Source: Eutreptiella sp. 'Long Island Sound 2002'
Lineage: Eukaryota; Euglenozoa; Euglenophyceae; Eutreptiales; Eutreptiaceae
DNA: 64,000 nucleotides
Direction of reading: 5' to 3'
NCBI GenBank assembly: GCA_964036045.1
Contig: OZ038378.1
Span: forward strand, 37,325,228 to 37,389,227
Shown: piece after piece, positions 8,769-64,000 of the stretch
How positions within the stretch are numbered: the first letter of the stretch is position 1
Layout: every line of letters begins with the position of its first letter
Translations under genes and position numbers: made by a program
The notes under the pieces: model-generated
Seen by the model: only the letters and a program-made list of their open reading frames with translations
Database searches by the model: none
Told to the model about the DNA's origin: nothing

Positions 8769-9466
8769 AAAAAGCACTGGGGTCCGCATCAGGGTTTGAT
8801 GTGGATCCATTGCCCCCGATGGGACATTCCAAGGGCGGTAGCGAAGATTCGCAAGGACCGCTCCAAGGCAGTGCTGGTTGTTCCTATGGGCTGCACCGAG
8901 GAGGAAAGCACCCGAGATTGGGTGGTCTCATTGACCAACATGGCCTTAAACAAGGTCGTCCTACCGGCTGGAGAGAGTGTCTATCAGGACGCTAAGGGAC
9001 AGCCCATGCCACCCCAGAGATGGCCAACGGAATTCCACTATGTGGATGGGGGCCTTGAACAGGCCGACACCACGGACGTCGTGTGTGTCAACCGCATCAT
9101 AGCAGAGCCATGGCGGCAATGCTTTGCGGTTCCCCTGTTGACATCGGAGAATCGGAGGACCTCCTCACTGAAGAGGAGTTGGATCTGGTTCAGGGGTATA
9201 TGGATCAGCCCTTTCACGACTGGGGAAACCAGCGTGAGGGCAAGGGCCAGGACAAAGCCTGGTGGGAAGTGGATTCCATCGTCTCCGGTTCCTATGATGG
9301 GAATACCTTCGTAAAGAGGGTGCTGGACCACATGTCCAGCCAGGACGAGCCAATCGGCGGCAACCCACCCACCTACGGCGACCTGTTCCGAGGCAAGCCA
9401 GAGATTGCCCTTTGGGCCACCTGGGAAGACCACCTGAGCGATCTTGTGGAGGTGCCCCGCAAGTAA
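8640..9466 (+). pseudogene. Methyltransferase-like domain between protease and RT (gypsy-1)
   Basis: The segment LALDAFSSGTCAHLRVCEKYW, then KKHWG, MWIHCPRWDIPRAVAKIRK, and AVLVVPMG has the order of the Dam-like N6-adenine methyltransferase fold that DIRS and some protist retroelements carry. The known pattern is D-x-F/F-S...N...Y, W, NPPW, and a strand ending LVVP. The catalytic NPPW is replaced here by HCPRW, so activity is unlikely. A TGA at 8766 and a frameshift near 9110 break the frame. The gypsy-2 copy (50.9-51.8 kb) has the same layout, also without NPPW. This identification is by pattern only. Confidence 0.45.
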
Positions 9467-12400
9467 GATCAGTGGTCCAGGTGCCCGGAAAAGCCAAGGC
9501 GGAGTCCGATGAGTGCCCAAAGATCCAGGCATTGAGGGCCAGGCTGAAGCAGAAGTATGGGGATACCTTCTTCAGCGGAAAACCTGTGTTTCCCCCACCG
9601 GTGCGTGGTCCGTATGGCGAGGCCAAGATACGACTGAAGCCGGACCCCCGTGTGTATCGACACCGGGAGTTCGCCCTGAGGGGCGAGAGGAAGGAGGCCA
9701 TGGAGAAGATCCTCCGAGATTTCATCAAGAGAGGCTGGCATGAGCCGTGCCACTCCGAGTGGGCCTCCCCGTGCTTCGTCGTCCCCAAGAAGGTGGCCGG
9801 TGAGTGGCGGCCCGTGGTCGACTACCGCGGCCTAAACACCCAAACGCAGCATGACAGCTATACGCTGCCCCTCATTGGGGACATGCTGCAAAAACAACAC
9901 CGGCGGAGGATCTTCACGGTGATTGACTCAGAACAAGGTTATCATCAGATGCCTCTCGCCGAGGAGTCCCGTGCCTGCACAGCCATGAGCAGCCCACTTG
10001 GACCTCTCCAGTGCAAGGTGATGCCCATGGGCGTTACCAACGGCAATGCGGCTTTTCAGCAGATGCTGGGAAACCTGCTTGAGCCGGTGCGTGACTGTGC
10101 GGACCCCTTCGTGGACGACATAATCATCGCGTCCGGGGACCCCAGTATGAGCTATGAGGAGCTCCTGGAGGCACATGAGAGGGACGTCACCCGAGTGCTG
10201 GACCTTCTTGTTCGGCACAAACTCGCGGGCAGCAGTGACAAGGCCACCATTGCGGTAAGCAAGGTGGTCTTCGCTGGCCACGTAGTTGGGAACGGGCAGC
10301 GGAAGCCCATACCTGGCAAGGTGGCTGCGATTGAGCAGTGGGAAAAGCCCAAAGCGGTCTCTGAGCTACGGGCGTACTTGGGGTTCTGCAACTACTACTC
10401 GGGGTATATCAAGATGTATGCCGAGTATGCAGGCCCCATGACGACCATGCTCAAGGGCAACCGAGAGGAGACCAAGGAGGGGTCCAAGAAGGCTCTGATC
10501 CGGAATGATGAGTCCGACCGCGCCTTTGAGGGGATGAAGCAGGCGCTGCTATCCGCAGTGGGTCTGCACCTTGTGGATCCTGACCGAGGGTTCGTCTTGC
10601 GCACCGACGCTTCCGACTACGCCGTTGGCGCTGTGTTGGAACAAGTGCTTGACGATGGCAGGCACGTGCCAGTGGCCTTCTGGAGCCGAGTCCTGGCGGA
10701 AGGCCAGAGACGGATGTGGACGCCCTGAGAAAAGGAGGCGTATGCCATCGTCATGGGTCTCAGGAAATGGGCTGGGTACATGGCCCTCCATCCCGTCACC
10801 GTCTGCACCGACTATCAGAGTCTGCAGTCGTGGCACAAAGAGCACGTGGACACCCCCTCTGGTCTCGCCTCCCGACGGGCAAGATGGCATGAGACCTTGG
10901 CCAAGTTCGACCTCACGGTTGTGTATGTTCCAGGCAAGGACAACACCGTGGCGGACTGTCTCAGTAGGTGGGCCTATCCCGCCAGCAAGGGCATGACGGA
11001 TGTCTCCGCCCATGGCGATGAGGCTGAGACCGCTGAGGCCAAGAGGATCATAGAAATGGAGCGCCTGACGGAGGAGGAGGGTGTTAAATGCTTCGTTGTC
11101 ATGGCTGCAGAAGCCCCCCTCGGAACGAGGATGGGCAGAGCGGTCAGAGTACTCGCCCCTGAGGGAGCTGAGTCCGACAAGCACCTCTTCCCTGGATCTT
11201 GCCTCCAGGACGAATGGACCGACGACTACGCTAAGTCTGAGGCCTTTGAGGCCGAGTATAGGGCTGTGACCGACCCTGATGACGGGCAGAAGTGGCCAAA
11301 GGGGCTGACTGAGGAGGATGGCAAGCTCTACCGGAATGGTAAGCTGCTGGTCCCAGAGTCCCGAGTGCTCGAGCTATGTGAGGCTTCGCACCACCACATG
11401 ATGCACCCAGGGGTCAAAAAGCAAGCCCTGGACATGCAGCGCCGGTTCAAAATCGACCAGATCAGTCTCTACAGCGCTATCAAGAAGGTCAGAAAGGGTT
11501 GCTCGGTCTGTCAGGCTTGCAATCCCGACAACCGAAACGTCAAGGGTGAAGCCCAATGGACTCCGGTGCCTGACCAGCCCATGGAGAGCGTGGCCATGAA
11601 CGTCTTCTCCATGCCCGAAGTTCACATAGGCAAGGAGACCTTTGACTGTGTGGTCCTTTGTGTGGACCGCCACAGCGGCTACGTAGTAGCCGTTCCAGCA
11701 CGCAAAAGGGGGTTGCTTGCCAAGGAAGTGGCAGTCATGATGATTTGTCATTGGCTGACCGTCTTTTACATCCCCCGCACCATTTGCAGTGACCGAGGGC
11801 CCAAGTTTACTGGTGGCTGGTTCAAGGCCATGTGTTCCCTCATGGGAATACGTCATGCCGAGAGCGTCGCCTATCTCAGCCGGTCCGATGGCCGGGCTGA
11901 AGTGGCTGAAAGGCAGCTGGTTGAGAAGCTGCGCAAGATTCACATCACCAAGCCACGTCTGAACTGGTTTGAGGACATGTGGCCTGCTCTGAAGGCCCAT
12001 CATGACACCCCCACTCCGGGTGGTTTGTCCCCTCACCAGATTCTGTCCGGCAGGGACCCCCTGGGTCGGGGACTTCCCTTGTCTGGTGATGGTATGGCCA
12101 TGGACGGCAAGTAATTCTTCGCGCGGCAAGAGGCAACGGCGCGGGACATCCGCCAGCAGCTCGAGAAGGAGCATGCTGAGCGTCACAAGTCCGCCCCGAG
12201 CTCGACAGCGCAAAGGTTCAGGCAGGGAGACCCCGTGTGGGTGATCAGACCCCGCCCTATGGGCACCCACCGCATCAAAACCTGGTTCACACCCAGAGAG
12301 GTGGTCCGCAGGATTGGTGAGGACACCTACTGCATCAAGGTGGGTCACGGACAGTTCCGGGAGCGCCACCAGAGTCAACTCCGTGTGCGGGAACCCGACC

Positions 12401-12711
12401 TCCGTGTCCAACATTTGTCCCTGGACTATGCCGCACATGAGGCTGATTCGGACGACGACTATGCTGAGCAGGACAACTATACCGTCGAGAAGATCCTGGC
12501 CCAGTGTCCGAACGCCTCGGCACCCGGAGGCCTGGAGTTCAAGGTTTGTTGGCGAGGCTATGGGCCGTCCCACGACACCTGGGAACCCGTCCCCCCGTTC
12601 ATGCCGCGGATTAACACCCCCTTCATGGACTACATCCGCAAGCACAAGACCAAGATCCATGTCTCGGACTTGGCAGCACTCACCCGGGCGATTGCAGCCA
12701 GGGGCGCTTGA
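9412..12711 (+). pseudogene. pol: gypsy-1 reverse transcriptase, RNase H, integrase, chromodomain
   Basis: One frame runs throughout, broken by two nonsense codons: TGA at about 10726, where TPREKEAY is expected (a CGA to TGA change), and TAA at about 12112. RT shows VDYRGLNTQTQHDSY, VIDSEQGYHQ and the catalytic PFVDDIII. RNase H shows RTDASDYAVGA, EKEAY, CTDYQSL and DNTVADCLSRW. Integrase has the HHCC zinc module (HHHMMHPGVK ... CSVCQAC) and the D, D, E residues in CVDRHSGY, CSDRGPKF and RAEVAERQ. The chromodomain near the end has YTVEKILAQ and VCWRGYGPSHDTWEP, the chromovirus targeting module that binds histone tails. Confidence 0.92.
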
Positions 12712-18875: not shown

Positions 18876-18893
18876 AGAAAAGTGTGTTGACGA
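18876..18893. repeat. Target-site duplication, left (LINE-1)
   Basis: AGAAAAGTGTGTTGACGA is identical to 25170-25187. It marks the 5' boundary of the LINE. Confidence 0.9.
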
Positions 18894-18976
18894 CTGAGCG
18901 CATCAGCGAGTGGAACGCGGCACCGGAGGACGCCGGCGCCGCTACGCCAACGCCGGGACCAAGCCGCATCGAAGAG

Positions 18977-19648
18977 ATGTCCGAGACCAGCGTCCCGCTG
19001 CTTGCTCCACTAGGAGGCGAGGCGACCACCCTCCTACCCCCCGACCACGGTGCCCCCACCCCCGCCTCGGATATTCAAATCGACCCCCGCCTCCCCGCTG
19101 GTTTTTGTTACGTCCGCGACGTATTCTCCGAAAGCCAAGAGGAAACGGTAAAAAAGATTCTCCACGACAACACGTGGGAGAAGTACCACGGGCGCTCAGT
19201 CCAACACTTCGGCCACGCATACCTCGGCCCGAGCAAAGTCGCCGCCACGTCCCCCATCCCGGAAGAGTTTTCCTCCATCCTCCAAACCTACAATGCCGCG
19301 CTGGAGCGGCTAGGCCTCTCACACCCTCCTCCCAACCAAATCACGGGCACAATGTATCTCCCGGGAGAGGGCATCGGCTACCACGGGGACGACCCCTTGC
19401 TAGGCGACCCAGTGTCCATTTTTGGTTCCCAATCGGACACCACAATGTTCTTTAAGAACCCCTCCAACGGGGACTCCTTTCGCATCCGCCTGTTTGCCCG
19501 CTCTCTCCTGGTCCTCACGGGGGCCGCACGCCATGAGTGGCACCACGGTATACCTCGACGGAGAGAAGACGAAGTGTTTGGGCTAACCGTCCCTCGTACC
19601 GTCCCTCGCCTCGCTCTAATCCTCCGACACGTACCACAGGCAAGCTAA
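18977..19648 (+). CDS. AlkB-type 2-oxoglutarate/Fe(II) dioxygenase, ORF1 of LINE-1
   Basis: The frame is open from 18809, but its first 28 codons lie in the flank and duplicated target, so the first ATG inside the element (18977, MSETSVPLLAP) is the better start. The AlkB core is complete. GYHGDD gives the iron ligands H and D. A strand with SIFGSQSDTTMFF follows, and RHEWHHGI gives the distal His. RLALILRHV matches the RxxxxxR pair that binds 2-oxoglutarate and substrate. Family role: oxidative removal of alkyl groups, such as m1A or m3C, from DNA or RNA. The frame ends 85 bp before the RT ORF opens. Because it sits between the TSDs it is element cargo or the element's ORF1, not a host gene. 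The substrate is unknown. Confidence 0.9.
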   Translation: MSETSVPLLAPLGGEATTLLPPDHGAPTPASDIQIDPRLPAGFCYVRDVFSESQEETVKKILHDNTWEKYHGRSVQHFGHAYLGPSKVAATSPIPEEFSSILQTYNAALERLGLSHPPPNQITGTMYLPGEGIGYHGDDPLLGDPVSIFGSQSDTTMFFKNPSNGDSFRIRLFARSLLVLTGAARHEWHHGIPRRREDEVFGLTVPRTVPRLALILRHVPQAS

Positions 19649-19733
19649 CCCACGAAAGCCAGAGGGCCGGGTACCCGCCTCCTGCACTGTCCAGCCCCCT
19701 CTACCCGAACACAAAAGGGCCAAGATTCAGTGA

Positions 19734-22700
19734 ACCACCGGCCCAGTCACGGCTTCCACCATCACAGGCAAGGGGCTAGACGACGAGCTCACCTCGGCCG
19801 GGATACCGGCCGACCAAATTCAGCACTTTCTTTGCCTTAGCCAGCCCAGCCAGCCCGGCTCCCCAGTGCCCCCCCAGCCCCCCCCTATCCCGCCCCCCCC
19901 GAGATCCAACACGCGCCTACGGAAGGGTTACCAACGGCCTCACCGCCCCCCCATACCCCTCCCTTCAGAACTGCGTTTTCTATCCCACAACTTGCAGAAG
20001 AAACCCATAGTGAGCAGCCAAATTCTCCGACACCTCAAGAACGACTTCGACATCCTCTTCCTCCAAGAAATCAATCACGCCCCCATCCTCCCCCACGTAT
20101 ACGCCTACGGTTCGGGCACTAAAGCCACCATCGTTTCGAATATCAGCCAAGACAAACACTCCAGAGGCGAGCATGGTTCCGTCTTGGTCTGTTCCCCCCG
20201 GCTCTCCCGCTTCGTTACCCCCCTTCCCCGACTAGATACAGAAGGGATGCTGGCGGCAGCCGTTCTCACTCTCCCGGGGGCCCCGCCCACCTTGCTGGTC
20301 TCGGTATACGCCCCAAGCACGGACGTCCACCGCTCAAAAATTGAAAACATCCTACGGCCACTCATGCATCAGTATCCTAACCACGTCCTCGGTGGGGACA
20401 CCAATTGCATAATGTGCCCTGAACTAGACGGATCGAACCTCCAAACGGACAACGAATGGCCGTGGCTTCGCAGACAGATCACGAGCGACCCGCCGCGCCT
20501 CATCGATACCTTTCGGCACTTTCACCCGACCGAGCGGTCCTTCTCCCGATACCCCACCCCGTACAGGGCAAGCAGCAGCCGCCTTGACCATATTTTGCTC
20601 TCCCCGGCGGCCTCAGAATTTTTTGCCCCCACCTCTGCAACCATCCAAACCGACGACAAAACGTCAGACCACCACCCAGTCACGTACACCTCTCAAGTCC
20701 CCCCTCACCCTTTTACCGAAGCTCCCACAACTAAGAGGAAAGTTTTCCGAAAACTGACGGAGCGGGAACGCTCCAAGCACCACGACTCCCTTGCCCCCCT
20801 GGCGCGGTGGTGCGAGTCTACCCTCCCCCGCTTTGAGTCCTTGTCCTCGGCGGACATCGAGCTTTTCACAGACGTCGTGCTGGAGGAAGTGGCGACCAGC
20901 TACCACAGTATCACCACGCCGTCACGCCCTACCTCCTCGGCTCTGGTAAAGAAAATCAAAGAGTCCCTGCAAACCTTGCCCCCCCCCAGCCATCCCAACT
21001 ACCCCGCTTCCATGGACACGCTCAACAAACTCGTCAAGGAGTGGGAAACCAAAGTGAACAAGGCCGCAACCACCAAAATCCATCGGTGCCTAGTGAGGAA
21101 AACTAGGATCAAACGCACCATCAACGAGGCGCTCAACCCCGTGGAACGAGGTGAAATAACGCTGAAGCGCCCGGGCACCACACAGCTCGTCTCCACCCCC
21201 AAAGAAGTGGGCTCTATTTTCTCTTCTACACTCCTCACCCTGGGGGGCAGCCTCGAATACGCACCGCCGAACACTCTAGTGGATCGCCTACTCGCACACT
21301 CCCCCGCCTGCCCCGAACCCACAAAACACGGCCTCCTCCCTGACATTACCTGGGAATCGTTACGCAACACGCTTAAGAGGTCCAAGCCCAACAAGGCGGG
21401 GGGGCGGGACTTCACAAACCACTACACTTTGCACGTCTCCCCCCCCCCTATCCAACAATTCATTTGGAAGGTATGCAACTACTACCTCCACCGGCCGTTG
21501 CCCGAGAAATGGCTCGAAGCCAACATTATCTTGCTTTTTAAGAAAGGGGACGTGATGAACCCGGTAAATTACAGGCCTATAGCCTTGCTGAACAGCGTTT
21601 ACAAAATAATTGCAACACACGCCAACCGAGAGCTACTGGCAGCGGCCATTGAACATTCCATCATACACCCCACCCAGTTCGGCGGGCTTCCGAACCGCAG
21701 ATGCCAGGACCACATTTTCAACCTCTTATCCACGTTTCGGGAATCGGTCGGTAGCTACAGCCTCTACATTGATTTCAATAAGGCTTTTAACTCCGTCCCC
21801 CACACCACCCTCTTCACAGTTCTATCCCGCCTGAACTTTCCTACGCCCCTTGTAAACCTCATTCAATCCTTGTACCGTGCCCCTCGCGACTTCCCAGTGG
21901 TGTCAGGTCAAACCCACTCCTCACACCTGCAAACCAGAGGCGTTCGGCAAGGATGCCCCATGTCACCAATCCTTTTCTGCCTCTACCTGAATGTGCTCCT
22001 CTTCGCCTTGCCGTCCCACGTCACTGCACCCCCCTCCCCACACGAATCGGGCCACGCCTTTGTTGACGACCTCCTCTATCGATCAGAGAATGGGGACCGC
22101 ATACAGCAAGTTTTAAACTTCTTCGACACGGTCGCCAGGGAGTGGGGTCTAGACCTTAACCTCAGCAAAACCGAGATCCACGCTATGGGAACAGCTCCCC
22201 CCAGAACCTTCACCTCCCCCTCGGGCACCCCCCTGTCGACAACAAACCAAAAGACGGGGCAACCACACAATTGCTACAAATACCTAGGGGTATACATCTT
22301 CACCGCCAACCATGAGGCACAAACACTGGCATTGGCCAAGTCGGAAATACGCTCATTTTTCACAACCCTCCAACCCCTCCAGCTCACCCTTTCGGAATAC
22401 ATTCTCTTGGTGAACGTCCAACTCATCCCTATTCTTTCCTACCGCCTCATGGCACACCCCCTGGCCCTGAGCGAGTTGGGGGCCCTTCAGGCCATGATCT
22501 GGCAAAATGTTGCGCATGACCCCTCCCCGGACAGAGCCAACAGGATCTCCCGCCTCGTCTCCCCTAAGGCCCGCTACACCCCTCGCCACCAGGGAGGCTT
22601 AGGACTCCGCCACTTCACTTTTTCAACTTGCATGGCCCTGGTAAACACCGCAATAAGGTACCTCAACGGAGACGGCCCGGCCTCGACAAACGAATCTTTT

Positions 22701-24779
22701 TCGGAAGCAATGCTCTCCACCACACGCAACGCAATCCAAGACACCATCATGGACGCATGCCACGCCATAGGCTTCCGATACCACAGCACCGGCCTCTGGG
22801 CCTCCTGCCCCCCCTCCCTTTTCCTCCCAAAAGAAAAAGTCCAGGTCCGGTTCCTAGCCACCAAGCCGGCACCACAATACAGCAAGTTCGGCAACAGATT
22901 AAAACGGACGCCCCAGGACCTGGGGTTCCACCTAGGTACAGTCACGGAAGTGCACTCAGAATCGGCCACACTCCAGTTTTCGGACGGCACCACCCACACC
23001 ATCAAAAACCCCGGTCTCCGCCGCAACGAGAAAGAATACACCTTTCAAAACCCAGCCATTTCTGTCCTCCCTCAACTGGCGGGTCGCCACGAACTGCTCA
23101 CCCCCCCCCTTCTTCACCCTCAAGAATACATCCTCAACCCCCCCCCCGGGCCATACGGCGGGGTCCTACTCGACTCGTCACTGCATGGCGAGCTGTACCG
23201 GCTCCCAGATGAACCTCACTCCCTTGACCCCGACGACCTCGAAGAATGGGGTTGTGAAGCAGCCCTTGCCCTCCTCCTCGCATCGTCCCCCGGCACGACA
23301 TGGGTGTACTTGGATGGCTCAGCGGGCGCCTTGGGCTACGGATCGGCGGCCACCCTGTTTTTTCCAAATGGCTCCAGATGGGTACTGTGCCAAACGTCCC
23401 CGTACCAGTCATCAGAGGGATCGGAGTTCTGGGCCGCTATTATGTTCCTACGGTGGGCCCTTGCATCTCACCCGCACCTCACCTTCGCCGTGCTAGGGGA
23501 CAACCTCCACGTTATCACTGTTCTCTCTCCGAACACCCCCCCAGGCCTCCCATCACGCTCGCCAGCCGGCACGTGGGAATCCTCTCTCCAGTCCATTCAG
23601 GCCTCCCTACGCCCAGGGATGATCCAGGGTTGGGGGTGGATCAAGGGGCACGCCGGGTTCGTGGGGAATGAAATCTCAGATGCTTACTCAAAGTGGGCCG
23701 CCCACGTGATGGTCTGGGACCCCTCCCTCCTCCCCCCCCCCCCGATAGGGTGCATATCCAGGGGCCCCCTCCCAGTCATACACAAATTGACTACAACCTC
23801 AATCAAGCATCTCCTCCCTCGCCACAAACACGAAAACATCCACGCACCGTCCAGCTTCCACTTTTACAATCACACTTCGTGGTTCAAAGGCCTCCCTTTC
23901 AAATGGTCCTCCGGAAATTTCAACATGGCGCCATTTGCTTTCCACGACGACTTGCGCCCTCGCCATTGCCACGCTTGCCCCGACCCGCACCCGATGGATG
24001 TTATCTCTTTCGTCTCACACTGCCCAACGTGCGAACACCTGGTCCAATCCTACATTCAATGCTGGCGCCCCCCTTTCACCACGGTGGTGTCCCAATGGTG
24101 GTCCGCGACCACACACGTGGGGGAGAGACGCAATTTCGTCCGGGGGCTTGTTCCCATGACGCTGTACACCAAACTCACAACCCCCCCCTCCGGCCGAAGA
24201 AAACCAGCACACTGTCACGACTTAAAACTCGCCCTGAAGGATCGTGTTCCCCTGCTCCTCAGCGCCCTATACCGCACGCTGGAATGGCTAAAAGACCACC
24301 CCCCCCCAGCCCCGCTCACCCCCCCTACGGGCCCCAACTCATGGGGACGCCCCTGGTCGCCCTACAGCACGTCGCACACCGCCCAACAACGCCCCCCCCC
24401 CGCCTACCACCCTCCCCCCCCCCTCCCGGACAAAGTTGCACACAAGCCCCCGAAACGCCCCCGCCCCCCATCTCCTGCGGCACACACCAAAACTCGAAAA
24501 CACGGCCGCCAGCCCCCAAGGCCCGTCCGGCCTCTATCACTGAAACGCGGTACCGCAAGTCAACCCCAGCCAGAGCCTCCGCCCCCCAAACGGCCGCTCA
24601 CAATCAGGGACATGTTCAACCTCCCCCCCCCCCCTAGACCAGCACCCCCCCTCGCCGCCTCCGCCCCCATTTCCGCCCCTTCTCCTCGCATAACAAGGTA
24701 CTTCGCACCAGCCCCCCCCTCCGGCGCGAGTACAAACTCACAATCGTCCTCACACTCGTCCAACGTGTCATCTCTTTGA
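19734..24779 (+). CDS. LINE-1 endonuclease-reverse transcriptase-RNase H polyprotein
   Basis: The frame opens after a TGA at 19731 and has no ATG near its start; the first possible initiator is GTG at 19866. Residue numbers below count from there. The APE-like endonuclease has SHNLQ (39), LQEIN, VYAPS, GGDTN (175), SSRLDHILL and SDHHPV (267). RT has NYRPIALLNS, YIDFNKAFN (633), GVRQGCPMSP and FVDDLL (731). RNase H has YLDGSAG (1144), SEGSEFWA, LGDNLHV and IKGHAGFVGNEISDA (1259). A cysteine/histidine cluster (CHACPDPHP ... SHCPTC, about 1365) resembles the LINE C-terminal zinc module. The long Pro-rich tail ends with TIRDMFNL and RITRYF, both reminiscent of PCNA-binding motifs. Confidence 0.93.
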   Translation, partial: TTGPVTASTITGKGLDDELTSAGIPADQIQHFLCLSQPSQPGSPVPPQPPPIPPPPRSNTRLRKGYQRPHRPPIPLPSELRFLSHNLQKKPIVSSQILRHLKNDFDILFLQEINHAPILPHVYAYGSGTKATIVSNISQDKHSRGEHGSVLVCSPRLSRFVTPLPRLDTEGMLAAAVLTLPGAPPTLLVSVYAPSTDVHRSKIENILRPLMHQYPNHVLGGDTNCIMCPELDGSNLQTDNEWPWLRRQITSDPPRLIDTFRHFHPTERSFSRYPTPYRASSSRLDHILLSPAASEFFAPTSATIQTDDKTSDHHPVTYTSQVPPHPFTEAPTTKRKVFRKLTERERSKHHDSLAPLARWCESTLPRFESLSSADIELFTDVVLEEVATSYHSITTPSRPTSSALVKKIKESLQTLPPPSHPNYPASMDTLNKLVKEWETKVNKAATTKIHRCLVRKTRIKRTINEALNPVERGEITLKRPGTTQLVSTPKEVGSIFSSTLLTLGGSLEYAPPNTLVDRLLAHSPACPEPTKHGLLPDITWESLRNTLKRSKPNKAGGRDFTNHYTLHVSPPPIQQFIWKVCNYYLHRPLPEKWLEANIILLFKKGDVMNPVNYRPIALLNSVYKIIATHANRELLAAAIEHSIIHPTQFGGLPNRRCQDHIFNLLSTFRESVGSYSLYIDFNKAFNSVPHTTLFTVLSRLNFPTPLVNLIQSLYRAPRDFPVVSGQTHSSHLQTRGVRQGCPMSPILFCLYLNVLLFALPSHVTAPPSPHESGHAFVDDLLYRSENGDRIQQVLNFFDTVAREWGLDLNLSKTEIHAMGTAPPRTFTSPSGTPLSTTNQKTGQPHNCYKYLGVYIFTANHEAQTLALAKSEIRSFFTTLQPLQLTLSEYILLVNVQLIPILSYRLMAHPLALSELGALQAMIWQNVAHDPSPDRANRISRLVSPKARYTPRHQGGLGLRHFTFSTCMALVNTAIRYLNGDGPASTNESFSEAMLSTTRNAIQDTIMDACHAIGFRYHSTGLWASCPPSLFLPKEKVQVRFLATKPAPQYSKFGNRLKRTPQDLGFHLGTVTEVHSESATLQFSDGTTHTIKNPGLRRNEKEYTFQNPAISVLPQLAGRHELLTPPLLHPQEYILNPPPGPYGGVLLDSSLHGELYRLPDEPHSLDPDDLEEWGCEAALALLLASSPGTTWVYLDGSAGALGYGSAATLFFPNGSRWVLCQTSPYQSSEGSEFWAAIMFLRWALASHPHLTFAVLGDNLHVITVLSPNTPPGLPSRSPAGTWESSLQSIQASLRPGMIQGWGWIKGHAGFVGNEISDAYSKWAAHVMVWDPSLLPPPPIGCISRGPLPVIHKLTTTSIKHLLPRHKHENIHAPSSFHFYNHTSWFKGLPFKWSSGNFNMAPFAFHDDLRPRHCHACPDPHPMDVISFVSHCPTCEHLVQSYIQCWRPPFTTVVSQWWSATTHVGERRNFVRGLVPMTLYTKLTTPPSGRRKPAHCHDLKLALKDRVPLLLSALYRTLEWLKDHPPPAPLTPPTGPNSWGRPWSPYSTSHTAQQRPPPAYHPPPPLPDKVAHKPPKRPRPPSPAAHTKTRKHGRQPPRPVRPLSLKRGTASQPQPEPPPPKRPLTIRDMFNLPPPPRPAPPLAASAPISAPSPRITRYFAPAPPSGASTNSQSSSHSSNVSSL

Positions 24780-25169
24780 AAGAGCCACACTTACACATTT
24801 TCTCACGCCGACCCTCGACAGCCCTAGCGGCGCGATCAATCAGTACTACCACACTGGCACTCACCAGTCACTTCTGCAAATGAATCCCTCCCCCAAGCCA
24901 CCCCCCGTGCTCAAGCCGTCATGCTCTAACCCCCAATCCGCAACCACACCGCCTTCGGGTATCAAGCGGAGACCCCGGCCTGCGGTTGTTTATAACGGGG
25001 CTGCCAAGTCTCTTTGAGATGAAGCAGACGAGGACAGCAACGTGCAGCGGCACTCAGCCCGCGATTGAACTTGATTTCGGGCTCCCGCCCCTCCCCAAAA
25101 AAGCTTGGCGCGCAAGAGCCTTTCTCCCCGGCCTGGCCAGCCACAAAAGGCGCCGTTCAGTGCAAAAAA
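24780..25169 (+). other. LINE-1 3' UTR
   Basis: About 390 bp runs from the stop codon to the A-run before the right target repeat. No frame or obvious hairpin was found. Confidence 0.7.
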
Positions 25170-25187
25170 AGAAAAGTGTGTTGACGA
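25170..25187. repeat. Target-site duplication, right (LINE-1)
   Basis: Identical to 18876-18893. Sequence just left of the first copy and right of this one would have been contiguous before the insertion. Confidence 0.9.
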
Positions 25188-34147: not shown

Positions 34148-35190
34148 CGGCATTCTACCCCAGGAGGGGGGCTTTGCCATCATGCTCCAGGAAACAGGGA
34201 TCGCCACCCGGGCGCAGGAGATGCACGTGGCCGCGGCGCTCCGGAACAAGGGGTACACCGCCTTCTTCAGCAGCCGGCTGGCGGAGACGGGAGCAACCTC
34301 CACCTCGAGAGGGGGGGGCCTCCTCACCGCGGTCAGCAGCAAGTACGTGGCGGAGCAGGAGGTGCTCAGTTTCACAGAAATTGTCCCCGGGAAGGCCGCG
34401 GCCCCGGAGATCCGCAAGGACGGGGGAGGCCTCACCCTCATCAACGTCCACGGGCCGCAAGCAAGCTGCTCCCCGTGGGCGGGACGGGCGGCGTTCTGGG
34501 CCGACATACAAATGTATGCCACGGCACGCAGCCTTGGTGGGAGGCGGCCGGTGGTCATCGGCGGCGACACCAACATCTACATGGATGTCCCCACCAACCC
34601 GGCCACGGAGCACTGCCGAGCGGGCTGGGAGGCCTGCGGTTTCCGAAGGGCCGCTGCAGGCGGCGAGGAGGACTTGACCCCCACGCTCCACCCGTCCCGG
34701 CACAGGGTGGACACCTTCCTGGTCAACGAGCCCCTCCTGCTGTGGTCCCTGCGGGAAAGCGTCTGAGCTTGCGGCATGGCACACCCCCAGGTGGTCTGCT
34801 AGGACCACCTCCCGGTCTGCCTGGCCCTGCCGGGTCTCCTCAGCGCAGCGGGGCGCGCGGCAATGCCGACCCCTTACAGCCACACGGAGGGCTGCCTCCT
34901 CCCCCCCGACGCCGAGGCCGCACCCGTCCAACACTGCCTGTGGGCGGGGGTCACTGCCGCGCAGGATGAACGCCCCCTGGCGCCCTGGCTGGGTCCCGCA
35001 GAGCAGCACGACTACGGGTCCATGCCCGCGGCCGCGGTGGACAAGGTGTTCGAACACCTCCACGCGACGCATGACGCCCTGGCGCGTGTGGTGGGACGCC
35101 GGCAGCCGTCCCCGGCGGGGACGGACCCGGCGGATGGGGGACCTCCCGGAGAGCGGAAAGCGGCTCCAGGCAGCGGTCCTCCGCTATGAC
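34148..35190 (+). pseudogene. LINE-2 endonuclease domain
   Basis: An APE-type endonuclease starts at the catalytic glutamate segment MLQETGIATRAQ. NVHGPQ, VIGGDTNIYMD and HRVDTFLVNE follow in the expected order. The final motif reads DHLPVC but is preceded by TAG at 34800 where Ser of SDH is expected. TGA at 34764 also interrupts the frame. A linker in the same frame continues to about 35189. The N-terminal Asn strand is absent because of the 5' truncation. Confidence 0.85.
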
Positions 35191-37542
35191 ACCCTGGCAG
35201 CGCGCGCGCCGGCAGCGTACCAGGCGGACGCGGCCCGGCATGGCATCCGTCCCGAGGCGGCGCTCCGGCTCACGGAGGAGCTGTAGGGTGTGTCGCCCGG
35301 GATCCGCCCGACCACACAGGGCCAGCTACAGGAGGAGCTGGAGAGGCAAGCAACCGCCCTCGAGGAGGACATTCGCCAGCTCTGCGCACTCCTGGCGGCA
35401 GACCGCAAGCGCGCCATCAAGGACTTCTGGCGCCGCCACGCCCCCGACATCGCCCAGCGATGGAAAGCCGTGCGGGGAGCCATAGAGGTAGAGGCCCCGG
35501 GCCCGTCAGGCCTCTGGAACGTGCGGGTCCCCAACATCCAAACGCTCCTCACGGAGGCCCACGACGTGATGTTCGCAGTTCGCGCCTTCTGGCGAGAACT
35601 GTATGACAAACGCCCGGTGGACCTCCCAGGCTTCCAGGCAGTCCTCGGCCGCCACGTCCCCCGGGTCCCTGAAGGGGCCTGGACACAGGTCCAGCAGTAC
35701 TCCATGCAGGACCTGAAGTCCGCCCTGGACAAGGCCGATGGCAAGGCCCCAGGTCCCAACCACGAGGAGGCCCGTTTCATCAAGGCCCTCCCAGCACCCG
35801 TCCAGTGGCTCCTGGTGCACTCCTACCGGGCCATCCTCGGCGGCGCCCCGCCGCCGATGCACTGGAGGGACGCGCACATCTCGCTCAGCCCCAAGGTACC
35901 GGGCTCTGCGAGACTGGACGACTACAGGCCCATAGCCCTGGGCCAGCTGGACATGAAGCTGCTCACGGGCCCCCTCACCCAGCGCATCACGGAAGTGCTC
36001 ACACGGCACGGAGTGGTCAGCGACTGGCAGCAAGGGGCCCTCCCTGGCTCCAACACAGGCCCCCCGCTGTTCATGGCGCAGCGGCAGCTCCAGCGGGGAA
36101 GGCCCAACTACGTCTTCTCCTTCGACGCCCGCAAGGCCTTCGACACCGCCCCGCACGGCGCCCTCCACCTCATCCTGCACCACCTCTCCGTGCCGCCAGA
36201 CGTCATTGACCTCCTGCTCTTCCTTCACACGTGCGCCAGGCTGCGCATCGTCACAGCACACGGGCTAACGCAGCCCGTCTACATGCTGCGCGGCGTCCGG
36301 CAGGGCAACCCCGAGAGCCCCCTACTTTACGCGCTCCTCCTGGAGCCCCTGCTCAGGGCGCAGGGGCACCGCCTGCGCCCGCCGGGAGGGGCCGAGCACG
36401 GCCTCATCCTGGCCTACATTGACGACCTGCTGGTTGTGGCCCACACGCTGCAGCACTTCGTCGAGGGCGTGGAGGCGGTGGCCGCGTACCTGGGGATGAT
36501 GGGCATGGAGCTCAACCCCCGCAAGTGCGCCATGGCCACCACGAAGGGGGTCCCGGGCCTGCAGCTGCGCCTCTGCCCCCACCTGGAAAACCCGTGGCAC
36601 TGGGTACCAGCGGCGAACTCTGTCCCCTACCTGGGACTCCAGCTGCAGCCGGACGGGGAGTTCTCCCTGCAGCGCAAGCACCGGCTACGCCTGGCGGCGG
36701 TGCACCGCTGGTGCCTTAACACCCTCGCACCACCGAAAGTGGTGCAGGACGTCATCTTGGCGATCCTCAGGGGGGTGACGCAGTACGACGCCCCTTTCAT
36801 CGCCGACGACTCCGACACTGCACGCCACCTGGACCACATCACGGTCCAGGTCGCAAAGGACAGGGCGCGGTACGCCTTCGACGCCTCGCGGGGCAGCCTG
36901 CAGGATACCCGGACCCTGGGGCTCACACGGGTGCCAACGCGGTGCCAGCAGGCAGCGGTGGCCCTCGTGGGTACAATCGTCCGCCACCGCTCAACCTCCG
37001 TGCGCGCCGAGGTCACCAAGATGTTCTGGGAAATAGCTGGCGCGCACGGCATATGTCCCGAGGTGCACTACCCCGTCCCGGAGTTCGCAACTCTAGCGGG
37101 GGGCGACTGGGTCCACCGCATACCCCGGGCCCTGGCCGCCCTGGAAGTGGGGCTGTACAACCCCATCGCGTGCCCCAGGGCGGCCCATGTCCAACTACAG
37201 TCCCCGCCGGGCAACATCGTCACGCTGCGCACCGCCAAGCTGCGACACCGCGACACGTGCCGCCTGACGGTGCCACACACAACGCCGTGGCATGGGCACC
37301 ACGGGCCACGCCACCCCTTCCCCGGCAACGACGACCCGTGGCCGACGGCGGTGCGGGAATGCCTCAACCAATGCGCCGATGAACACCTCCACTTTTGCCG
37401 CCGTGAGCAGGAGCCCACCAACCACCCCAGGTGGCGCGACGCCTTGGTCCACCTCTTCCACACCACCGGCACGCGGGACCCCCGCCTGAGACTCGTCTAC
37501 CCACGAGGGCTAAGCAGGACGACCACACCGGCCCACGGGTGA
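35190..37542 (+). pseudogene. LINE-2 reverse transcriptase
   Basis: A 750-codon frame (from 35290) contains the RT fingers and palm: DDYRPIALGQLDMKLL, SFDARKAFDTAPH (first catalytic Asp), GVRQGNPESPLLYA and AYIDDLLVV (catalytic pair, about residue 374). The thumb follows with SVPYLGLQLQPDGEF. A TAG at 35284 separates it from upstream codons in the same frame (about 35190-35283), and the endonuclease is in a different frame, so the original polyprotein is broken by one frameshift and one stop. Confidence 0.9.
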
Positions 37543-38780
37543 CCCCGGACGGCCTGCACCTCCACGTCGGGGGCTACCGCCGCCGGGACGGCCTATCCCC
37601 CCCCACGCGGGGGGCGGCGTACCACCCGCCGGCAGCCCTCATGTACATCCTCCGCGACGTACTCGCGGAGAGGGAGCACCAAGAGCCTAACGCGGACGTG
37701 GCATGGCCCGAGCCCCTGCGCCCCCGGCCCCACGCGCCGACGCCGTTGTGGTTGGTGACCACGGACGACCAATGCACCCAAGCGACGGGGCAAGCGCAGC
37801 TCCGGGCCGAGTGGGTAATAGTACAGGTGGGGGCGGGCCAACCCGAACCCCGTGGGCTCCCCCGTGGCACCGCCGTGCTGGTAGCTACGGGGGTGCCGCA
37901 CGACCCACACATGGCGGTGCACGCGTTGGAGGACCAGCCGGAGGACACGGGGCACCTGGTGGTGCACCAGCGCGGGGGCCCGGCGTGGCTCAAGGAACAT
38001 GTGACGGCACTTCGGTCCTGAGCAAGCACGATCACCGGAGCGGAGATCCGGCTGCACGACCACCCGGCGATCAGCCCAGGCGACACCAGGGCGCTGAGCG
38101 TGGACGAACCGACCCCCAGCCACCCCGACGTCTGGTGGCACTCCGCCGACCTCAACGCGGGGTGGCTCAGCCCCACCAGATACTACCACATCCTGGAGGC
38201 CTGGGGCCACACCTCTTCCGACGCGTCCGGGGGCGGACCCTGCAAACACGCCACCAGCGTCGCTCTCGCCGCCGACCTCACCCGCACGTGGGCGGTGGCC
38301 ATCTCGGGCACAGTGCCAGACGGGGAGGGGGTGGCCGCCTCCCTCCCCCTACAATACGGTGCCCACCGACCATGGGTCCACATGGTTGACGCCGAAGTCA
38401 TCCTCCACCTCCTGCGGCACGCAGATCGCGAGCGAACCACGGTGGTCCCCGCGGGCGCAGCGAAGGTGGTCAACCAGATGCCCCTGAGGTGGCTCCGGGA
38501 CAGCCTGTGCGCGCGAGGGCAACACGCCGGGCACCCGTTCTGGTACGTCCGAGCCACCTCGCACCACAGTGACGCCCTACTGCACAAGGCGGACTCGGCG
38601 GCGTCCCAGGACACCGTCCTGCAGAACACGCCCCCGGACCCTAGCCACGCCCAGCTCATTGTCGCCGGCGGTGACGGCCATCTTGATCTACGGCCCCCCA
38701 CGATGCGGGTGCTCGGCGAGGTCGCACAGCGGGCGCGGACGGACCATGCGCTGACGCACCGGGGACACACACCTTTGGGC
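37543..38780 (+). pseudogene. LINE-2 middle region with RNase H-like segment
   Basis: The reading frame shifts after the RT stop and runs to about 38780 with one TGA near 38019. The first half matches nothing I recognise. The second half ends with FWYVRATSHHSDALLHKADS, which resembles the H...AD..A end of RNase H domains, after a DAEVIL segment. I treat it as a diverged or decayed RNase H. Confidence 0.5.
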
Positions 38781-40695
38781 GCGGCCCACAACAGCCTCGG
38801 CCTATGCCCGGGACCTCACCGCGACGGCCACCAACCGCCGGGCGCTGCGGGCCCGAGACGGCCACACGCCGGTGCAGCGCAGGCTCCGCGTCCGTAAGGA
38901 GCGGCTCTCCGGCGTCGCCATCGTCCCACAACCGTGCCTCCTATGCGGCGGCCCGGAGGAGACCCCGGTGCACATGCACGTGGGGTGCGCCCACTCACAG
39001 CTCCTCTGGCCCCACTACCGCCAGGCGGTACACGAGGCGTCCCGCCACCTCCCACCCGGGGACAAAGCCCTGTGGGTGGCCTCGTGGCGCTCCGCAGGCG
39101 CCACATGGACGGAGGTTTTCTGCTCCGGACTGGTGCCCGAGGAGGCGGAGGCGCAGCTCCGCGCCATAGCCCGCTACGACCCGCCGGGAGGGACCTCTGT
39201 GGACGATTTCATCCACCACATGCTCCGGCTGGGGGACTTCGCATGGGAGCTTCGCAACCACCGGCTGGAGCAACCCCTCCGCGAGCCCCAGAGCGCGGCG
39301 GCCCGGGCACACCGGTGGCTCACTGCGGCGGAGGGCGACCACCCTCCCCCTCCCCCGCGCCCTGACAAGGACTTCGTAGCCTCCTCCCGTGTCGTGAATG
39401 GCACTCTGGAGTGCCCGCCCCAAGAGGGCCCTCACCCGTACCAGGACTTGCCGGGGGGGTTCTGGAGGCACCTACAAGACGCCCTCTCCCCACCGTGGTT
39501 CATCGGGCGCGGCTCCGTGACCGCGTGGGAGGCGCGCATCGTGGGTGAGGAATGGGCGCGCGAGTGGAGTTGGTGGTGCGCCGCCACGCGCGCCCCGGAG
39601 ACCCCTGCGCAACGATACGCCGCCATCCCGCTCAAGGGATGGGGGCCGGACACCCGGCCGAGACCCACCGTGATCCGCGGGGCGGGACCTGACCACCTGT
39701 GGGACGCGGCGACGGGGGAATGGCTGCAGGCGGCCCCGGGGCCGCAAACGGGATGGACTGGGGACGTGTCCTCACTTGTCAGGACACCCGTCCCGCCCCG
39801 CATCGTCCTTCACGCCGCCAACGTACTCCGGGCTACGGAGATAGGCACGTGGGGACACGCCGCGGCCACCGTCCGGTGGCACCCCCCAGAGGACGGGGCC
39901 GCCCAGCTCGCCGTGGCGCACTTCAAAGCTGGGGGGCCGGTATACGACGACGCCCTGTCCCGGCTGGGCGACACCCAGGGGCCCTTGCTCCTCATGCTCC
40001 CCACCGACATTGCAGCCGCGCTGCGCCAGGAGCTGGACGGCTGCGAAGGGCTGCGAGTGGGATTGGAGGCAGTCGCGGACGGCACCCTGCTGGCCCTCCT
40101 CCACCGAGACACCGCAAACGGGTGCCGATGGGATGCGCTGACGCCTCACCTCACCGGGCGCCATGTGTACATGGCAACCCCCCCCCAGGGGCACCCCCGC
40201 CCGGCGTGGGACGACCTCATCGCCGCCTTCCACGACCACGGGATCCTCCCCGACGACACGTGGCAGGAGGTCCAGCGGAAGACGCTTGGCAAGGACTACC
40301 GGCGCTGCGTCCGCGCCCGCTTGCTGGAGATCCAGGACCCCCTCCGACAGAGGTGGGACGACCTCTGGCTCCGCCATCTTGACCCTTGGTTGCCGCCCTC
40401 CCACCTCCCACACACCTGCCGACTCTGCGGGGAATCCGACACGGTGTCCTCCGCAGCATTGACAGGCGCCAACAGGTGCGCGCAGGGCGCCCAGGTGGCC
40501 GCGTGCCCCTGGCCCGAACCTCCCGCAGGCCCGCGCAGGCGCACAGAGGAGGAGGCCCTGCATCGGCGCATCGAAGGGGCACACACCCCCTCACACGAAC
40601 GAGCGGGCCCCGCGGGCGCTGCCCTTCTGTGGATCCACGTGCACCTGCGGGACCCCAGATCCGTTGCGCACCTGTCGCACGTGTTCCCGCCCTAA
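38780..40695 (+). CDS. LINE-2 C-terminal region with Cys/His clusters
   Basis: This long frame reaches TAA at about 40693 and is entered by a frameshift from the RNase H-like part. PCLLCGGPEETPVHMHVGC near its start has the C-x2-C...H...C pattern common at the C-terminus of LINE proteins. A second CRLCGE occurs near the end. Between them is a ~450-residue unrecognised part rich in Trp and Pro. It is probably part of the original RT polyprotein. Confidence 0.6.
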
Positions 40696-40734
40696 CCCCC
40701 ACCCGCCGCCGCCCTTTGCAGAGCCCGCAGCACC

Positions 40735-63479: not shown

Positions 63480-63760
63480 TCCTGGTTGGGGTGTTGGGGT
63501 GTGTGTGTGTGCCTGTGTGCGCGCTCCACTTTAACCCCGCCACCCCTGGCTCGGGTGTGCGGTTTGGATGTGCGTGCTATGGCTTGGCTTTCCGCTGCGC
63601 CCCGCCACTCCTGGCTGGGGTGTTGGGGTGTGTGTGTGTATCTGTTTGCACTCCGCTTGTGCCCTACCACTCCTGCCCGGGCTGTGCGGCGTGGGTGTGT
63701 GTGCTTGGGCTTGGGTTTCAGCTGCGCCCCGACACTGCTGGCTTGGTGTATTTCCTTGCC
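61800..63760. repeat. Minisatellite, ~127-bp dimeric unit, about 15 copies
   Basis: Each unit is a pair of half-units that both begin ccccgccactcctggctggg. One continues with gtgttggggtgtgtgtg and the other with gtgcggtgtgggtgtg and then gggctcgggtttcggctgcg. Spacing varies between about 125 and 129 bp. Alternating tg runs make it prone to slippage. Confidence 0.9.
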
Positions 63761-64000
63761 AAAAGGTTAGCTTTAGTTTTTATAATGAGGCCTAAAGGCA
63801 TAACACATTTTTATCTTAGTATTGGCCTATCCAAAAAGGGGTGACAGGACATTTTGACCTATAAAACCAAGCATCAAGCTTTGGAGGTTGTGCGGACCCC
63901 TGACCCCCCAACTGATTGATCTTTTACACCATTTCCTGGACTGACTGAGGCGCTGACATTGATCCAGAGCCCATACATGTTTCTTTTTTTTCTTATGAAT
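63761..64000. other. Non-coding end of window
   Basis: AT-richer sequence after the minisatellite; nothing recognised. Confidence 0.4.

What the first reader, a model, noticed from the sequence alone, without database searches (positions are those of the whole stretch)
18894..25169. A LINE that carries its own AlkB dioxygenase
Seen: the AlkB ORF, with HxD, distal His and RxxxxxR intact, lies between two identical 18-bp target duplications together with an intact endonuclease-RT-RNase H ORF. It is therefore part of the element, in the ORF1 position. Known: AlkB proteins strip alkyl groups from nucleic acids and occur in some plant RNA viruses, where they are thought to protect the genome. Inference: the dioxygenase may demethylate or repair the element RNA or cDNA, or counter RNA-methylation-based silencing. 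I am not certain whether AlkB-LINE fusions have been reported.
Basis: partly seen in the sequence, partly recalled or inferred. Interest (0 to 1): 0.87.

Follow-up and report, generated by a model that had tools for sequence, protein, structure and literature searches.

The report
Jumping gene carrying an AlkB enzyme
In a Euglena-type alga, several related families of an abundant "copy-and-paste" jumping gene carry, inside their first protein, an intact-looking enzyme domain of the kind that strips methyl groups from RNA or DNA, which suggests that the jumping gene brings its own tool to clean or unmark its RNA.

Summary
18894-25169 is a LINE flanked by an exact 18-bp target duplication, with an AlkB-type dioxygenase domain upstream of an EN-RT ORF. 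But this copy is 5'-truncated: complete copies are about 8.46 kb, and AlkB is the C-terminal part of a 903-residue ORF1, behind a segment with an RRM-like model. AlkB is not a passenger. Of 150 copies chosen by endonuclease, 97 have AlkB at the same spacing; of the other 53, 20 were fetched: 19 have it at full length (one with a 1-nt insertion), one is internally deleted. Two further LINE families (AlkB 29-35%, ORF2 32-49% identical to A) carry AlkB at the same place in a homologous ORF1; HxD...H and RxxxxxR are invariant between the three ORF1s. Variants shared by copies have pN/pS 0.19 (B) and 0.21 (C). New: the complete 5' end is the Euglena spliced leader (24 of 24 ends read; 225 exact genomic matches), so the host is most likely Euglena. 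An AlkB retrotransposon is known from orchid Ty3/Gypsy elements; six searches of the held library for an AlkB or dioxygenase LINE showed none. Most likely ORF1p demethylates the element RNA; this is inferred, not shown.

The parts
18876..18893 (+). 5' target-site duplication, AGAAAAGTGTGTTGACGA
   Evidence: exact 18-bp repeat
18894..25169 (+). 5'-truncated LINE copy (family A)
   Evidence: homology of 30 other loci with the window breaks at 18892-18894 on the window side while those loci share the sequence just upstream with each other; 3 other copies end at 25168-25169
18894..19648 (+). 3' part of ORF1 (first in-element ATG in frame at 18977, stop TAA 19646-19648)
   Evidence: complete ORF1 of 903 aa in L060:35-2743
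19085..19645 (+). AlkB-type 2OG-Fe(II) dioxygenase domain (ORF1 residues ~717-903)
   Evidence: Pfam PF13532; AlphaFold blocks of pLDDT 74-87 over ORF1 residues 721-870; Foldseek best hits ALKBH6, Ofd2, ALKBH8
19382..19390 (+). HxD iron ligands (H816, D818 of ORF1)
   Evidence: letters; invariant in A, B, C
19544..19546 (+). distal His iron ligand (H870)
   Evidence: letters; invariant in A, B, C
19607..19627 (+). RxxxxxR (R891...R897), 2OG-binding signature of AlkB proteins
   Evidence: letters; invariant in A, B, C
19734..24779 (+). ORF2 open frame (1681 aa stop to stop; first in-frame ATG only at 20247)
19983..20672 (+). APE-type endonuclease domain
   Evidence: PF03372 35.7 bits; SDHHP motif
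21543..22295 (+). reverse transcriptase domain (FVDD)
   Evidence: PF00078 111 bits; best solved match is L1 ORF2p
23298..23696 (+). RNase H-like stretch
   Evidence: PF00075 22.9 bits, below its cut-off of 25.8
25164..25169 (+). short A tract at the 3' end
   Evidence: letters; similar in the C6 and C18 copies
25170..25187 (+). 3' target-site duplication
   Evidence: exact 18-bp repeat

Best explanation
It is an APE-type LINE of a Euglena genome whose ORF1 protein is a fusion: a long N-terminal region of unknown fold, an RRM-like segment, and a C-terminal AlkB dioxygenase of the ALKBH8/ALKBH6/Ofd2-like branch. Shown here: AlkB is part of the element, stands at the same place in three diverged families with homologous ORF1s, and evolves under purifying selection in two of them. 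The simplest reading of this is one capture before the families split. Inferred: ORF1p coats the element RNA through the RRM-like segment, and its AlkB domain removes N-alkyl groups (m1A, m3C, perhaps m6A) from that RNA in cis, so that it is not blocked as a template, decayed or silenced before target-primed reverse transcription by ORF2p. The window copy itself is 5'-truncated and cannot make whole ORF1p.
For: Linkage not conditioned on AlkB: 150 family A copies chosen by endonuclease; 97 have AlkB at spacing 970-971 (96 by script, one more after correcting a typing slip); of 20 fetched of the remaining 53, 19 have full-length AlkB in place. Three families with AlkB at the same place before ORF2. 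Iron ligands and both arginines invariant in the A, B and C ORF1s. Selection: AlkB pN/pS 0.23 (7 B copies) and 0.20 (3 C copies), next to EN 0.14 and 0.26, B RT part 0.21, and the stretch before EN 0.50 and 0.79; variants shared by two or more copies 0.19 (bootstrap 0.11-0.29, 22 B copies) and 0.21 (0.07-0.54, 8 C copies), singletons 0.58 and 0.50. Fold: AlkB; RRM-like. Precedent: an AlkB from an orchid Ty3/Gypsy element binds RNA and has demethylase activity in vitro (PMC9289625, abstract and passages).
Against: No substrate was tested. The nearest structures (ALKBH6, Ofd2, ALKBH8) have different or unsettled substrates (recalled), so RNA is a guess from the LINE context and the RRM-like segment. 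That segment's model rests on 3 sequences (pLDDT blocks 68-84 over residues 11-80), no Foldseek match has E <= 0.001, and Pfam and PDB sequence searches with it found nothing. The N-terminal ~520 residues have no confident model. B and C copies were picked by AlkB profile score, which lowers pN/pS; the shared-versus-singleton contrast cures this only in part. A search that would pick B copies by endonuclease did not complete. One A copy of the 20 fetched lacks most of ORF1 and AlkB (L099), and 3 of 22 B copies have a changed RxxxxxR (2) or a stop next to the distal His (1). Support for one AlkB clade is moderate (82/83).
Confidence: 0.6

Rival explanations
1. Cap/leader eraser: the AlkB domain removes Watson-Crick-face methyl groups from the 5' nucleotides of the trans-spliced leader on the element mRNA, so that the reverse transcriptase can copy to the very end and full-length, leader-bearing copies result.
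For: 24 of 24 5' ends read carry the complete leader, 17 of them preceded by AC, as in a start at ACAC; 225 exact leader-joined 5' ends in the genome, 0 in the reversed-pattern control.
Against: Whether the Euglena leader has such a cap was not checked; LINEs without AlkB also make full-length copies (recalled); the 20 later ends were picked from copies with long open frames, so truncated ones were excluded; the leader may be copied from DNA rather than trans-spliced anew.
Confidence: 0.12
2. DNA-side role: AlkB repairs alkylated single-stranded cDNA or target DNA, or erases a DNA methyl mark at the insertion.
For: AlkB relatives that act on DNA (ABH2, E. coli AlkB, NMAD-1) are among the structural neighbours.
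Against: Sequence scores favour ALKBH8, Ofd2 and ALKBH6 over NMAD-1 and ALKBH3; the domain sits in ORF1p behind an RRM-like segment, not in ORF2p.
Confidence: 0.15
3. Protein or chromatin substrate: the domain hydroxylates or demethylates a protein, as an Ofd2- or ALKBH7-like enzyme (substrates recalled).
For: Ofd2 is among the best sequence and structure matches.
Against: RxxxxxR and the RNA-linked context point to nucleic acid; no further evidence.
Confidence: 0.08
4. Structural use only: the double-stranded beta-helix serves as a nucleic-acid-binding or multimerising part of ORF1p without catalysis.
For: ORF1 proteins of LINEs are nucleic-acid chaperones in general (recalled).
Against: All three iron ligands and both arginines are invariant between ORF1s only 25-28% identical to A; 19 of 22 B and 8 of 8 C copies keep all three signatures.
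Confidence: 0.05
5. Chance passenger or assembly artefact in this copy.
For: L099 shows that a copy without AlkB core can exist.
Against: 150 scored close copies without stops, picked by similarity; 116 of the 117 endonuclease-chosen copies that were resolved have AlkB in place (97, 19 of 20); three families; purifying selection.
Confidence: 0.01

Closest known systems
Phalaenopsis Ty3/Gypsy elements with an ALKBH5-like ORF2 (PMC9289625; abstract and passages)
   Same: A retrotransposon that encodes an AlkB dioxygenase; there RNA binding and demethylase activity were shown in vitro
   Different: LTR element close to Ogre in the Tat family, 25 kbp, AlkB in an additional ORF, nested with plant ALKBH5 homologues, found in one orchid genus; here an APE-type LINE, AlkB fused to ORF1, ALKBH8/6/Ofd2-like, shared by three diverged families
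AlkB domains of plant RNA viruses (recalled, not looked up)
   Same: A genetic element with an RNA stage that carries AlkB
   Different: Part of a viral replicase; no integration
ALKBH8 (PDB 3thp/3tht, 'RRM/AlkB domains')
   Same: RRM-like domain N-terminal to AlkB; among the best sequence and structure matches
   Different: ALKBH8 is a cellular tRNA enzyme with a methyltransferase domain (recalled); none here; the RRM-like segment has no sequence match
L1 ORF2p-type LINEs
   Same: EN-RT ORF2; L1 ORF2p is the best solved match (72 bits); target duplications of 17-18 bp, short A tract
   Different: RNase H-like stretch after RT (weak), AlkB domain in ORF1, spliced leader as 5' end
Relict spliced leaders of recycled dinoflagellate mRNAs (PMC3229502, passages, citing Slamovits and Keeling)
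   Same: A trans-spliced, leader-bearing mRNA reverse-transcribed into the genome; the family C copy read has a tandem leader remnant
   Different: There host genes in dinoflagellates; here a LINE in Euglena, and the 24 family A ends read have one leader without tandem relicts
SLACS/CZAR LINEs of kinetoplastids (recalled; SLACS named in PMC10161547, passages)
   Same: LINE connected with spliced leader sequence
   Different: They insert into SL RNA genes (recalled); here the leader is the element's own 5' end and the flanks are unalike

Membership tests
Non-LTR retrotransposon (LINE), APE type | RT plus APE-like endonuclease in one ORF | tested here: met
Non-LTR retrotransposon (LINE), APE type | Target-site duplications of differing sequence | tested here: met
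   three copies: 18 bp, 17 and 18 bp as printed
Non-LTR retrotransposon (LINE), APE type | No long terminal repeats | tested here: met
   first and last 1500 bases of the C6 copy: no blastn match at E 0.01
Non-LTR retrotransposon (LINE), APE type | Dispersed copies with common 3' end, some 5'-truncated | tested here: met
   3 other copies end at the same base give or take one; the window copy is truncated
AlkB family of 2OG-Fe(II) dioxygenases | HxD...H iron triad and RxxxxxR | tested here: met
   19 of 22 B and 8 of 8 C copies
AlkB family of 2OG-Fe(II) dioxygenases | Profile and fold match | tested here: met
   PF13532 above cut-off for A, B and C; Foldseek E 3e-16, TMt 0.76 to ALKBH6
AlkB family of 2OG-Fe(II) dioxygenases | Oxidative demethylation activity | not testable with these tools
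   needs an assay
ALKBH8-like subfamily | RRM before AlkB | tested here: inconclusive
   RRM-like model, best Foldseek E 3e-3 and none <= 0.001; no sequence match
ALKBH8-like subfamily | C-terminal methyltransferase domain (recalled) | tested here: not met
   ORF1 ends after AlkB; Pfam shows only PF13532
AlkB-bearing Ty3/Gypsy elements | LTRs, integrase, protease | tested here: not met
   no such Pfam domains in ORF1 or ORF2; no terminal repeats
SL-gene-targeting LINEs (SLACS, CZAR) | Insertion into SL RNA genes (recalled) | tested here: not met
   24 5' flanks are unalike (best ungapped pair 45% over 40 nt, mean 27%) and none of the 24 loci read holds the SL-gene intron piece searched for
LINE families A, B and C as one lineage | Homologous ORF1, AlkB at its C-terminus, ORF2 directly after | tested here: met

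The most novel reading that the evidence does not exclude
A LINE lineage of euglenids uses its own RNA dioxygenase to erase methyl marks that stop reverse transcriptase, up to and including the methylated cap nucleotides of the trans-spliced leader that has become the element's fixed 5' end: an epitranscriptomic eraser as an obligate part of the retrotransposition machine.
Probability: 0.13. Interest if true: 0.93.

Novelty: new variant of a known kind. Interest (0 to 1): 0.76.

Why it matters
A retrotransposon lineage that keeps an AlkB enzyme under purifying selection through the split of three families says that chemical marks on its RNA or cDNA limit its spread. Together with the orchid LTR elements it would be a second, independent capture in another class of retrotransposon and another branch of eukaryotes. 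The family A copies are young (about 99% alike) and numerous, so whether RNA methylation controls transposons outside animals and plants could be tested in a laboratory alga. The leader-bearing 5' ends also offer a new view of how a LINE lives with trans-splicing.

Tried and rejected
Chance passenger: rejected by linkage and selection tests.

Separate AlkB gene beside the LINE: rejected, since complete copies have one 903-codon ORF1 that ends in AlkB.

Using family A copies for pN/pS: the 0.056 is void, because copies were ranked by protein identity to the query.

L099 was first read as a 5'-truncated copy; one search shows an internal deletion of about 2.26 kb with a 4-base overlap at the joint. 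By eye the joint lacks GT-AG.

Relatives elsewhere: 65 and 20 proteins, all of source 'ena' without a name, 65-99% and 84-100% identical to family A, probably the same species. No B- or C-like protein came up with the A+B+C profile, and the AlkB part of the B ORF1 found none, which I cannot explain. The eukaryote coverage of that database is unknown, so absence elsewhere is not shown.

Naming the host by COX1: asked ten times, never answered; RbcL asked once, not answered. The host was then recognised by its spliced leader.

Whole-ORF1 model: poor outside AlkB.

Literature: six searches aimed at an AlkB or dioxygenase LINE and four on the Euglena leader, the Euglena genome, leader retroposition and Euglena elements. 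I saw listings, capped (25 of 42; 15 of 1,985; 15 of 95), and passages of five papers. No AlkB LINE seen. Most subscription papers and Repbase are not in that library.
Full report
What is in the window. The element at 18894-25169 is flanked by an exact 18-bp duplication, 18876-18893 and 25170-25187. It has an open frame matching PF13532 (33.4 bits) followed by a 1681-residue frame (stop to stop) with endonuclease, reverse transcriptase and a weak RNase H match below its cut-off. The iron ligands and RxxxxxR are in the letters.

The copy is truncated. Thirty other loci (L010-L038, L040) align to the window from 18892-18894 rightwards at 99% identity and stop there on the window side, but they share the sequence just upstream with each other. 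Two complete copies, read from adjoining stretches of C6 and C18, are about 8.46 kb; they have target duplications printed as 17 and 18 bp, ORF1 of 903 codons beginning 223 bases from the 5' end, and ORF2 of 1681 codons stop to stop. The C6 copy has no terminal repeats. AlkB is about the last 190 residues of ORF1. The window copy lacks about the first 650 codons.

Number and linkage. The AlkB-part query scored 150 of 1736 candidates, all at 98-100% identity and without stops; the DNA query scored 40 of 529. These are lower bounds, and the scored ones are the best matches. To avoid picking by AlkB, copies were picked by endonuclease: 150 scored of 2972 candidates. Of these, 96 had an AlkB match at spacing 970-971 by script, 97 after correcting one of two typing slips. 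Of the other 53, 20 were fetched and 33 were not. Nineteen of the 20 have the full 672-bp AlkB part in place, one of them with a 1-nt insertion; the twentieth, L099, is internally deleted.

Three families. AlkB profile matches elsewhere in the genome led to families B and C. Twelve such loci were fetched first; ten have an ORF2 match after AlkB, at 32-49% identity. Eight of these reach beyond ORF2 residue 604, where the RT profile begins; L049 ends at 603 at the edge of its locus and L054 matches in the endonuclease part only. The other two, L057 and L058, have no ORF2 match and look like host genes. Twenty further AlkB loci all fell into B (15) or C (5); ORF2 was not read there. The AlkB domains are 29-35% identical to A. 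One complete ORF1 of B (916 aa) and one of C (1134 aa) align with A at 28% and 25% identity, with H816, D818, H870, R891 and R897 invariant. A tree of 14 AlkB rows groups A, B and C (support 82/83), with L057, L058 and repeat D as neighbours. The support is moderate and C is a long branch, so a single capture is likely, not proven.

Selection. In 7 B and 3 C copies, AlkB pN/pS is 0.23 and 0.20, against EN 0.14 and 0.26, the B RT part 0.21, and the stretch before EN 0.50 and 0.79. All pairs of 22 B and 8 C copies give 0.33 and 0.34. Over the same copies, variants shared by at least two, hence mostly inherited while active, have pN/pS 0.19 in B (bootstrap 0.11-0.29) and 0.21 in C (0.07-0.54); singletons have 0.58 (0.45-0.77) and 0.50 (0.29-0.88). 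The copies were ranked by AlkB profile score, which biases downwards; the shared/singleton contrast is less exposed to this. Of 22 B copies, two have a changed RxxxxxR and one a stop next to the distal His; 8 of 8 C copies are intact there. The family A figure is discarded as circular.

Fold. AlphaFold of whole ORF1 with 11 sequences is poor (mean pLDDT 43) except AlkB (74-87 per block over 721-870). Foldseek puts ALKBH6 first (E 3e-16, TMt 0.76), then Ofd2 and ALKBH8. A separate model of ORF1 residues 519-644 from 3 sequences has beta-alpha-beta-beta-alpha-beta order with pLDDT blocks of 68-84 over residues 11-80. Most of the 50 listed Foldseek rows are named as RRM or RNA-binding domains; the rest are chains of spliceosome, ribosome or related complexes whose domain the row does not name. 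The best E is 3e-3, none is at or below 0.001, and TM scores by query are 0.36-0.45. Sequence searches with that segment found nothing. I call it RRM-like and no more.

The 5' end and the host. The four 5' ends first read begin ACACTTTCTGAGTGTCTA followed by a T run and CG. PMC6242988 (passages) gives ACTTTCTGAGTGTCTATTTTTTTTCG as the spliced leader of Euglena gracilis and says that E. longa has the same. Twenty more ends, taken copies with long open frames, have it too: 24 of 24 in all, 22 with eight T and two (L044, L045) with nine, 17 preceded by AC; the 5' flanks are unalike (best ungapped pair 45% over 40 nt, mean 27%). The genome holds 122 exact leader+GTNNG sites, many of the listed ones in arrays on C2, and 0 in the reversed control; the three sites read show the leader followed by GTATG, as SL RNA genes should. 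It holds 225 exact leader-joined family A 5' ends, control 0. The genome size of 2.28 Gb fits E. gracilis (k-mer estimate 2.25 Gb, assembly 2.37 Gb; PMC11252322, passages), though the longest contig here, 201 Mb, exceeds that assembly's longest chromosome, 121 Mb. I therefore take the host to be Euglena, probably E. gracilis; the species is not proven, and the COX1 search did not complete. The B copy read has a one-base leader variant and the C copy a tandem leader remnant; the C 5' region is close to A for about 65 bases after the leader although ORF1 is 25% identical. So the integrated copies descend from leader-bearing, hence most simply trans-spliced, mRNA. The nine-T leader shared by two copies that are 99.9% identical hints that the leader is now inherited with the copy; this is a hint from two copies, and the two genome counts that would have tested it did not complete.

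How it most likely works. Shown: a LINE with an AlkB-bearing ORF1, kept by selection. Inferred: ORF1p binds the element RNA by its RRM-like segment, AlkB removes N-alkyl marks from that RNA, and ORF2p copies it. The orchid Ty3/Gypsy AlkB, which binds RNA and has demethylase activity in vitro (PMC9289625, abstract and passages), is the best analogue. L1 is itself affected by the m6A writer METTL3 and by ALKBH5, where ALKBH5 suppresses it (PMC7873242, start of abstract in a listing); this runs against a simple 'm6A removal helps' reading and is one reason to favour RT-blocking marks such as m1A and m3C. A bolder reading is that AlkB clears methylated cap nucleotides of the leader; nothing here tests it.

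Novelty. Six searches of the held library aimed at an AlkB or dioxygenase LINE showed an AlkB retrotransposon only in orchids; four others concerned Euglena and leaders. The library lacks most subscription papers, listings were capped, and Repbase was not searched. The E. gracilis genome paper reports LINEs at 1.49% and does not contain the word AlkB; the Diplonema paper reports a dozen AlkB-type genes without linking them to LINEs in the passages seen. I rate it a new variant of a known kind.

Noticed in passing
L046:3612, L044:2455, L047:3133; L106-L125: The complete element begins with the host's trans-spliced leader in 24 of 24 ends read; 225 exact leader-joined ends in the genome.
   Followed up: yes
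L062 (reverse strand, about 211-257): The family C copy read has a tandem leader: a leader with small changes followed by the remainder of a second one, like the relict leaders of dinoflagellate recycled mRNAs.
   Followed up: partly
L044 and L045, 5' ends: Two near-identical copies share a nine-T leader instead of eight T, a hint that the leader is inherited with the DNA copy and not added anew each round.
   Followed up: partly
window 19646-20247: ORF2 has no in-frame ATG before the endonuclease domain; the frame opens after a TGA 85 bases past the ORF1 stop, so its start of translation is unexplained.
   Followed up: no
L099: A family A copy with leader and 5' 563 bases joined to the end of ORF1, an internal deletion of about 2.26 kb at a 4-base overlap.
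   Followed up: partly
L063:180-1274, L064:165-1295: Another repeated AlkB-bearing open frame (365-377 aa, 'D') with no RT noticed in the 3 kb read (by eye); the kind of repeat is unknown.
   Followed up: partly
The protein database holds family A ORF1 (one cluster of 163 members) but nothing matching B or C, although these are intact and repeated in this genome.
   Followed up: no
window 34180-40700: A second, distant LINE (RT 27% identical to this ORF2) with no AlkB match near it.
   Followed up: partly
window 9412-12114 and 52715-53605: Frames with RT and RNase H and a sub-threshold integrase match (first) and an RT fragment (second), Ty3/Gypsy-like; a chromodomain-like frame follows the first at 12235-12711 (by eye).
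   Followed up: partly
window 61300-63850: Long degenerate tandem array (by eye) giving repetitive open frames on both strands.
   Followed up: no
L001-L008, L057, L058: The genome has several AlkB-type genes in long open frames outside LINEs; L003 looks like AlkB joined to further domains (by eye).
   Followed up: no
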